50,854 bases of DNA from an uncultured Bacteroidota bacterium (GTDB lineage: Bacteria > Bacteroidota > Bacteroidia > AKYH767-A > JABDAW01), in assembly GCA_903844645.1 (NCBI GenBank), contig CAIMUP010000067.1, positions 1 through 50,854 of the forward strand, read 5' to 3'. Position numbers and translations under genes: made by a program. Of this stretch, positions 12,633 through 42,225 are shown piece by piece; within the stretch, counting starts at the first letter, position 1; each line of letters begins with the position of its first letter. Below the pieces are notes generated by a model. That model was not told the DNA's origin. It made no database searches and was given only the letters and a program-made list of their open reading frames with translations.

Positions 12633-12682
12633 TCATCGTTTTATGATTGCGACCTTCTTGGGGAGCAACAATAAAACGATGA
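12633..12682. repeat. Bipartite hairpin b, 3' of the kelch/PKD gene
   Basis: TCATCGTTTTAT at 12633-12644 is the exact reverse complement of ATAAAACGATGA at 12671-12682. Inside it TTGC pairs with GCAA around a C/G-rich loop that ends in GGGGAGC. It lies 28 bp beyond the stop of the minus-strand gene ending at 12710 and probably ends its transcript. Confidence 0.85.
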
Positions 12683-20382: not shown

Positions 20383-20431
20383 TCATCCTTTTATTGCACC
20401 TCCCGAAAAGGTCGGTATCATAAAAGGATGA
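20383..20431. repeat. Bipartite hairpin c
   Basis: TCATCCTTTTAT at 20383-20394 is the exact reverse complement of ATAAAAGGATGA at 20420-20431, with a smaller inner hairpin in the 25-nt loop. It lies upstream of ruvB, at the left edge of the region holding arrays 5 and 6. Hairpin d closes that region on the right. Confidence 0.85.
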
Positions 20432-20492
20432 AAGGAACGTGGACAGCATCACCTTTCAGGTGTAATGGTCATTCGCTTCTTCCTGCCCTTTC

Positions 20493-20555
20493 CATCCTTT
20501 CTTACAGGTAAAAAGAGGGTCCGAAACTGGAAAGGGTGGTGTTTGGGCAAAACTC
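20493..20555. repeat. Leader copy A1 before array 5
   Basis: A 63-bp segment beginning CATCCTTTCTTACAGGTAAA is 50/63 identical and gap-free to the segment at 20724-20786 before array 6. Both end in AAAACTC, the first bases of the following array. The arrays they precede have different words. Confidence 0.85.
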
Positions 20556-20668
20556 CTAGGAGTTTGAAGAATTTTCCTAGTAGTTTTTGGTTTTCTACTA
20601 GGAGTCCGAGGAGTTTTCCTAGTAGTTTTTGGTTTTCTACTAGGAGTTTTCGGTTTTCTTCAAGGGAT
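20549..20668. repeat. Tandem array 5, 42-bp unit with internal hairpin
   Basis: The palindromic block CCTAGTAG-(11 nt)-CTACTAGG occurs at 20576-20602 and again at 20618-20644, 42 bp apart. Half blocks with CTCCTAGGAG, GAGGAG and GGTTTTC lie on both sides. Another AAAACTCCTAGG is at 20675-20686. Confidence 0.85.
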
Positions 20669-20723
20669 TTCATGAAAACTCCTAGGTTTCCAAAAATGAA
20701 GAGCACCTCGTTCGGTTTTCATA

Positions 20724-20786
20724 CATCCTTTCTTCAATGTAAAAAGGGGGCTGAAAACTGGAAACGATGATGTTTTGGTAAAACTC
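20724..20786. repeat. Leader copy A2 before array 6
   Basis: This is the second copy of the 63-bp leader at 20493-20555, beginning CATCCTTTCTTCAATGTAAA. Its last 26 bp are also part of the left arm of the inverted repeat that bounds array 6. Confidence 0.85.
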
Positions 20787-20984
20787 GTTGATGTTTTGAT
20801 CAAACACGTATGAGTTTGACCAAAACTCTTACGTGTTTGATCAAAACTCATACGTGTTTGATCAAAACTCATACGTGTTTGACCCAAACTCATACGTGTT
20901 TGATCAAAACTCATACGTGTTTGATGAAAACTCGTATGTGTTTGATGAAAACATCAACGAGTTTTATGAAAACATCACTGTTTC
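20761..20984. repeat. Tandem array 6, 21-bp unit, inside a 40-bp inverted repeat
   Basis: The word AAAACTCATACGTGTTTGAT plus one base repeats at a 21-bp step; GTGTTTGA recurs at 20833, 20854, 20875, 20896, 20917 and 20938. One copy at 20799-20818 is inverted. The array is enclosed by an imperfect inverted repeat, 20761-20800 against 20945-20984 (35 of 40 positions pair). A further 8-bp hairpin (CTTTACCA/TGGTAAAG) lies at 20994-21021. Confidence 0.95.
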
Positions 20985-21031
20985 GAGAAAGGGCTTTACC
21001 AGGTTTTGAACTTTGGTAAAGTTTATTCCCG

Positions 21032-21076
21032 CATCCTTTTATGACATTCCCTTTTTGGGGATGCAATAAAAGGATG
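21032..21076. repeat. Bipartite hairpin d, 3' of the YdeI-family gene
   Basis: CATCCTTTTAT at 21032-21042 is the exact reverse complement of ATAAAAGGATG at 21066-21076. Inside, CATTCCC pairs with GGGGATG around a T5 loop. It lies 17 bp beyond the stop of the minus-strand gene ending at 21093 and may terminate it. Confidence 0.85.
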
Positions 21077-42172: not shown

Positions 42173-42225
42173 TTCATCCTTTTATTGCACCACCGCCAGA
42201 GCGGATGGTAGCATAATAGGATGAA
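42173..42225. repeat. Bipartite hairpin e, 3' of the GldM_C-like gene
   Basis: TTCATCCTTTTAT at 42173-42185 pairs with ATAATAGGATGAA at 42213-42225 (one mismatch). Inner stems ACC/GGT and CCGC/GCGG follow, then GGTAGC. It lies 8 bp beyond the stop of the minus-strand gene ending at 42234 and is probably its terminator. Confidence 0.85.

What the first reader, a model, noticed from the sequence alone, without database searches (positions are those of the whole stretch)
20761..20984. Array 6 is enclosed by a 40-bp inverted repeat and contains an inverted unit
20761-20800 pairs with 20945-20984 at 35 of 40 positions, and the unit at 20799-20818 is inverted relative to the rest. A transcript could fold the entire array into one long hairpin; a DNA element could use the arms as ends. 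The arm overlaps leader A2, so leader and boundary are the same object here.
Basis: seen in the sequence. Interest (0 to 1): 0.7.

Follow-up and report, generated by a model that had tools for sequence, protein, structure and literature searches.

The report
Foldback 21-bp repeat element between genes
The repeat cluster really is closed at both ends by a long inverted repeat, and it is one of hundreds of small folded-back repeat elements, all built on the same 21-base ruler but with different sequences, that fill the spaces between genes in one uncultured genus of Bacteroidetes; what they do and why the ruler is so strict is unknown.

Summary
Observation confirmed: 20761-20800 pairs with 20945-20984 at 35/40, pairing runs inward to about 57 bp, and 20798-20817 is an inverted unit; 0 of 1000 unit-scrambled arrays match it. 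Array 6 is the core of a dispersed element: 38-bp leader, 224-bp array in one 21-bp register, downstream hairpin. Related copies: C141 (89%), C20 (shorter), C140 (same leader and span, mostly different units); all close on their own arms. Arm identity is 64/66 in C141, 54/66 here, 50/66 in C20, with words copied from the opposite arm: the signature of template switching in a quasi-palindrome. The feature is general: 44 of 112 sampled arrays are closed end to end by locus-specific inverted repeats (2.2 expected). Such arrays occur at about 24 per 100 kb here and 11-12 in two congeners, none in 364 kb of more distant relatives. Nearest known kind: the BrickBuilt minisatellite MITE of Porphyromonas gingivalis. 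Shared ends, a consistent target duplication and an autonomous partner were not found. The strict 21-bp ruler is unexplained.

The parts
20384..20430 (-). Outer hairpin (hairpin B, tail-type), CATCCTTTTATGATACC...GGTGCAATAAAAGGATG; left end of the composite, pointing away from the arrays
   Evidence: Pattern and nhmmer copies; compensated stem changes in 20 aligned copies
20493..20530 (+). Leader copy in front of array 5
   Evidence: Exact pattern, one of six copies in the genome
20531..20690 (+). Array 5: 21-bp units in the same register as array 6, weakly closed
   Evidence: TRF; register
20724..20761 (+). Leader copy in front of array 6 (CATCCTTTCTTCAATGTAAAAAGGGGGCTGAAAACTGG)
20761..20817 (+). 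Left arm of the enclosing inverted repeat; first two and a half units
20763..20972 (+). Array 6: ten 21-bp units in one register (a TRF call gives 20795-20973)
20798..20817 (-). Inverted unit, reverse complement of the main unit
20928..20984 (+). Right arm of the enclosing inverted repeat, ending CATCACTGTTTC
21032..21076 (+). Outer hairpin (hairpin B), right end of the composite, opposite orientation to 20384-20430
20384..21076 (.). Composite: hairpin B (inverted) - leader - array 5 - leader - array 6 - hairpin B, between ruvB and a DUF1801/OmdA gene
   Evidence: same outward hairpin pair around arrays in L082, C14 (L065) and C141 (L083)

Best explanation
Array 6 is one copy of a small non-coding dispersed element: a 38-bp leader, a foldback minisatellite of ten 21-bp units (224 bp), and a downstream hairpin. 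It belongs to a genus-specific class of roughly 190-290-bp intergenic elements whose ends are inverted repeats private to each locus or small family. Shown: repeated leader, common register and span, closure by arms, genus restriction, presence/absence between species, rarity of register-shifting indels. Inferred: the arms arise and stay matched because the strand folds back during replication and one arm is copied onto the other (quasi-palindrome template switching), while the middle units are homogenised by unequal exchange or slippage, so unit sequence turns over but the 21-bp register and the closure persist. Spread to new sites is inferred from copies with unrelated flanks; the enzyme is unknown.
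For: Copies: C141 89% over 270 bp, C20 87% over 157 bp, six leaders in the genome, all followed by an array. Arm conversion: at arm positions where array 6 and C20 carry the mismatched right-arm words, the right arm of C141 carries the left-arm sequence, making 64/66 identical; in array 6 the left arm has instead taken part of the right-arm word at positions 38-40. C140 has different bases in arm positions 10-14 and still pairs 14/14. General closure: 44/112 arrays vs 2.2 expected by cross-pairing ends of different arrays; 15 vs 0.2 at score >=16; arms up to 97/97 perfect, spans mostly 190-285 bp. Literature: template switching makes quasi-palindromes more perfect (PMC7202029) and can create or maintain stems (PMC8794818). 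Genus restriction: 23.5, 12.1 and 10.6 arrays per 100 kb in three congeners; 0 in 152 kb of a same-family genome and 0 in 212 kb of order-level relatives. Gain or loss: an array between two conserved adjacent genes (read as atpE and atpF by eye from the DNA) is absent in G001. Not coding: no open frame across array 6, C141 or C20, no 3-base periodicity in unit differences, stop-free frames as expected.
Against: No common terminal sequence and no consistent target-site duplication across elements, so ordinary transposition is not shown. Only two to three full copies carry the conversion inference. Neutral minisatellite drift does not explain why 95 of 104 arrays keep a base period of exactly 21 or 42 with register shifts detected in only 1 of 112. 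Direction of each arm change is inferred from three copies without an outgroup.
Confidence: 0.6

Rival explanations
1. The element encodes a structured RNA: the whole array is transcribed and folds into one long hairpin, perhaps cut by RNase III, with selection keeping the arms paired.
For: Very stable predicted fold on both strands; closure kept in four leader copies with compensated differences; 40 of 95 arrays self-complementary beyond the column-permuted null.
Against: Pairing in C20 has decayed to 50/66 and array 6 to 54/66; changes come as blocks identical to the other arm; about 60% of arrays show no end-to-end closure; no Rfam match in the window; no expression data.
Confidence: 0.13
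2. A selected DNA architecture: 21 bp is two helical turns, and the arrays act as phased binding or looping sites for a genus-specific nucleoid or replication protein; inverted arms are part of the site.
For: Invariant 21-bp register across unrelated units (mean identity 0.74 at lag 21, about 0.25 elsewhere), near absence of 1-2 bp indels, intergenic placement in 76 gaps.
Against: Unit sequences are mostly unrelated between loci, so no common binding motif; no 10-11 bp sub-period; orthologous gaps can lack the array.
Confidence: 0.12
3. A classical MITE or REP-type element moved by a transposase, with hairpin B as its end.
For: Hairpin B occurs as outward-pointing pairs around arrays and is always oriented with the array on its 5' side (18/18); stem changes are compensated; 24 copies here, 20 and 3 in congeners.
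Against: Hairpin B also occurs alone or in tandem; Y1 (RAYT-type) transposase matches in the three congeners are short and mostly interrupted, with no hairpin B next to them; no consistent target duplication.
Confidence: 0.12
4. An invertible switch (inverton) whose arms recombine to flip the interior.
For: Inverted arms around an intergenic segment in a Bacteroidetes genome.
Against: The three full copies have their units in the same orientation relative to the leader; no recombinase gene noticed next to it.
Confidence: 0.03

Closest known systems
BrickBuilt MITE of Porphyromonas gingivalis (PMC4596501)
   Same: Leader - short tandem array (23-nt units, no spacers) - tail, always intergenic, confined to few species, no transposase, Bacteroidetes host
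   Different: BrickBuilt has one unit sequence in 19 copies and TIRs like those of IS5-family elements; here the unit and the enclosing arms differ from locus to locus, the period is 21, the array itself is closed by long private arms, and estimated numbers are some hundreds to about 900 per genome
Quasi-palindrome template-switch mutation hotspots (PMC7202029; PMC8794818)
   Same: Imperfect inverted repeat whose arms become more alike by copying one from the other
   Different: Known as a mutation mechanism at single sites; here it would act on many tandem arrays with arms of about 15-97 bp
Tandem repeats of archaeal Borg elements (PMC9879509)
   Same: Pervasive, locus-specific tandem arrays, fast turnover, nearly absent from relatives (there, the host)
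   Different: Borg units vary in length, are near-perfect, about half lie in genes; no enclosing inverted repeats mentioned in the passages read
REP / REPIN elements (PMC3116915, abstract start only)
   Same: Hairpin B resembles a dispersed palindromic element found singly and as inverted pairs
   Different: No intact RAYT gene found in the three congeners
Foldback (FB) elements of Drosophila (own knowledge)
   Same: Long inverted termini made of short tandem repeats
   Different: Here bacterial, about 230 bp, private termini; no homology tested

Membership tests
MITE | Short (50-1000 bp), non-coding, multiple dispersed copies | tested here: met
   224-270 bp core, no open frame; copies at C141, C20 and related C140, C14
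MITE | Terminal inverted repeats shared among copies | tested here: inconclusive
   Shared between array 6, C141 and C20 and partly C140; not shared between different elements of the class
MITE | Target-site duplication | tested here: inconclusive
   Flanks of 18 closed arrays inspected by eye, no consistent duplication; one AT-rich imperfect direct repeat at the filled atpE-atpF site
MITE | Ends matching an autonomous transposon | not tested
   Only Y1 transposases were searched
BrickBuilt | Leader, minisatellite, tail | tested here: met
   Leader 6/6 followed by arrays; hairpin B downstream with fixed orientation
BrickBuilt | 23-nt unit of one sequence | tested here: not met
   21-bp units differing by locus
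REP/RAYT system | Intact REP-associated Y1 transposase flanked by the hairpin | tested here: not met
   Only short or interrupted Y1 matches in the three congeners, no hairpin B beside them
CRISPR | Repeats separated by unique spacers | tested here: not met
   Head-to-tail units without spacers
Known structured RNA (Rfam) | Match at gathering score | tested here: not met
   0 matches in the window
Inverton | Both orientations of the interior | not testable with these tools
   No reads; copies show one orientation

The most novel reading that the evidence does not exclude
A so far undescribed class of chromosomal elements: hundreds of intergenic foldback arrays per genome, all measured by one 21-bp ruler although their sequences are unrelated, created or rewritten in place by a genus-specific enzyme or constrained by a two-helical-turn DNA structure, with ends that are private inverted repeats.
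Probability: 0.35. Interest if true: 0.85.

Novelty: new variant of a known kind. Interest (0 to 1): 0.58.

Why it matters
If the class is what it looks like, a bacterial genus has rebuilt much of its intergenic DNA out of folded-back minisatellites whose unit length is fixed while sequence is free. That would be a natural test bed for arm conversion by template switching, and asks what measures 21 bp. It also warns that long paired arms with compensated changes need not mean a functional RNA.

Tried and rejected
Y1/RAYT mobilisation: only short or interrupted matches, not next to hairpin B. Coding of 7-residue repeats (21 bp = 7 codons, and one antisense ORF over array 5 looks heptad-like): rejected, no frame open across array 6 or its copies, no 3-base periodicity, no excess of stop-free frames against dinucleotide shuffles; a first count suggesting an excess used a null that ignored dinucleotides. 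Viral origin of hairpin B: no match in IMG/VR. Orthologous empty site for array 6: not obtained; neighbours of ruvB differ in G001 and G003, no array directly upstream of ruvB in G001, and the loci around the OmdA-type gene in relatives hold no 21-bp array. Leader in congeners: none in G001 or G002. Rfam: none. Association of hairpin B with foldback arrays: only suggestive (10/16 vs 30/79, p 0.10). Literature searches turned up no description of such a 21-bp system; that is a search of open-licence papers only.

Full report
What was claimed and whether it is there. The arms continue inward, 50 of 57 over 20761-20817 / 20928-20984, and the stretch 20798-20817 is the reverse complement of the array unit. 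A null that permutes the 21 columns of all units alike, keeping tandem structure and diversity, never reached the observed arm score in 1000 trials. Both strands fold far better than dinucleotide shuffles, but much of that comes from repetition; against the column-permuted null the array alone has z -4.8.

It is a repeated element. A search of the window's own genome with 20700-21000 found a 270-bp copy at C141 (89%), a shorter one at C20, and leader-only matches at C14, C140 and in front of array 5. The leader pattern occurs exactly six times in the genome, always followed by an array, and not in the two congeners. All six arrays run in one 21-bp register from the leader. In the window, C141 and C140 the closing arm ends at the same distance (leader base 261, a 224-bp core), although C140 has mostly different units; C20 is four units shorter. 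Array 5 and C14 are at best weakly closed.

How the arms evolve. Comparing 66 arm positions: C141 arms agree at 64, array 6 at 54, C20 at 50. Where array 6 and C20 share mismatched right-arm words, C141's right arm carries the left-arm sequence. In array 6, the left arm at positions 38 and 40 carries the right-arm bases, while C20 and C141 keep the other word. Blocks copied from the opposite arm, in both directions, are the signature of quasi-palindrome template switching (PMC7202029, PMC8794818). C140 differs from array 6 at arm positions 10-14 and pairs 14 of 14. This is enough to keep arms paired without selection for an RNA. The direction of change is inferred from three copies only.

It is general. 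In 416 kb of the genome, 98 arrays of at least 80 bp have a base period of 20-22, 42 or 63 bp (23.5 per 100 kb), with mostly unrelated units; 95 of 104 arrays have a base period of exactly 21 or 42. Extrapolated, that is several hundred to about 900 per genome; part of the sample was chosen around hairpins, but two stretches picked without a hairpin match give 20 per 100 kb. Only 2 arrays fell inside predicted genes. Two congeners have 12.1 and 10.6 per 100 kb; 152 kb of a same-family genome and 212 kb of order-level relatives have none. Of 112 arrays from the three congeners, 44 are closed end to end by an inverted repeat at score 10 or more against 2.2 expected from pairing ends of different arrays, and 15 against 0.2 at score 16. 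Arms are private to the locus, up to 97 of 97, and several extend beyond the array into unique flank; spans are mostly 190-285 bp. No shared termini or constant target duplication were seen.

Context. A separate hairpin (hairpin B) flanks the composite on both sides, at 20384-20430 (-) and 21032-21076 (+). It has compensated stem changes, 24 exact-pattern copies here, 20 and 3 in the congeners and none in G003. Among one genome for each of 84,980 species the stricter pattern hit only the two congeners, records CAIWCG01 and JABDAW01 (the window's own genome may be left out of that scan). Whenever it lies within 250 bp of an array, the array is on its 5' side (18 of 18). Outward-facing pairs enclose arrays in four places. 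Its mover is unknown: Y1 transposase matches in the congeners are short or interrupted.

Turnover. At one pair of adjacent genes conserved between G000 and G001 (read by eye as atpE-atpF) G000 has an array and G001 has none. At the locus orthologous to C14, G001 has a closed array of different sequence without the leader, and the upstream hairpin B is conserved in place.

What remains strange. Units differ by about a quarter between neighbours, yet only 1 of 112 arrays shows a 1-2 bp register shift by the test used. Coding does not explain it. Either length is constrained (two helical turns) or arrays are made by something that measures 21 bp. I could not test this.

Verdict. Filed as a new variant of the minisatellite-in-a-MITE kind (BrickBuilt, PMC4596501), without claiming membership, because the private unit and arm sequences, and the lack of shared ends or target duplications, do not fit.

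Noticed in passing
window, whole; loci L064-L083: About 24 tandem arrays per 100 kb with base period 21 or 42 bp and mostly locus-specific units, in most intergenic gaps longer than 150 bp; register-shifting indels almost absent. The strict 21-bp ruler is unexplained.
   Followed up: partly
12634-12681, 20384-20430, 21032-21076, 42175-42223; 40 sites in the 416-kb sample: Hairpin B, a genus-specific dispersed hairpin with compensated stem changes, oriented with neighbouring arrays always on its 5' side.
   Followed up: partly
L075 18499-18762: Perfect 97-bp inverted repeat around a 21/42-bp array, arms mostly outside the array.
   Followed up: no
L075 1187-1370 vs L087 about 8934: Array between two conserved genes that look like atpE and atpF, absent in congener G001; flanks show an imperfect AT-rich direct repeat.
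   Followed up: partly
L065 9588-10564 and L083 10994-12105: Two composites of outward hairpins around a small gene region, the leader and an array; the stretch from the gene start through the leader is 95% alike over 173 bp, while the arrays differ.
   Followed up: no
L066 3918-7111: Four hairpin B copies in tandem orientation within 3.2 kb, some next to related small genes.
   Followed up: no
ends of contigs C40, C58, C117, C138, C140: Several contigs end within a few hundred bases of hairpins or inside arrays, so these elements probably break the assembly and are undercounted.
   Followed up: no
20449-20706 (-): Antisense frame over array 5 reads as a leucine-rich heptad-like peptide; probably chance, since 21 bp is seven codons.
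   Followed up: partly
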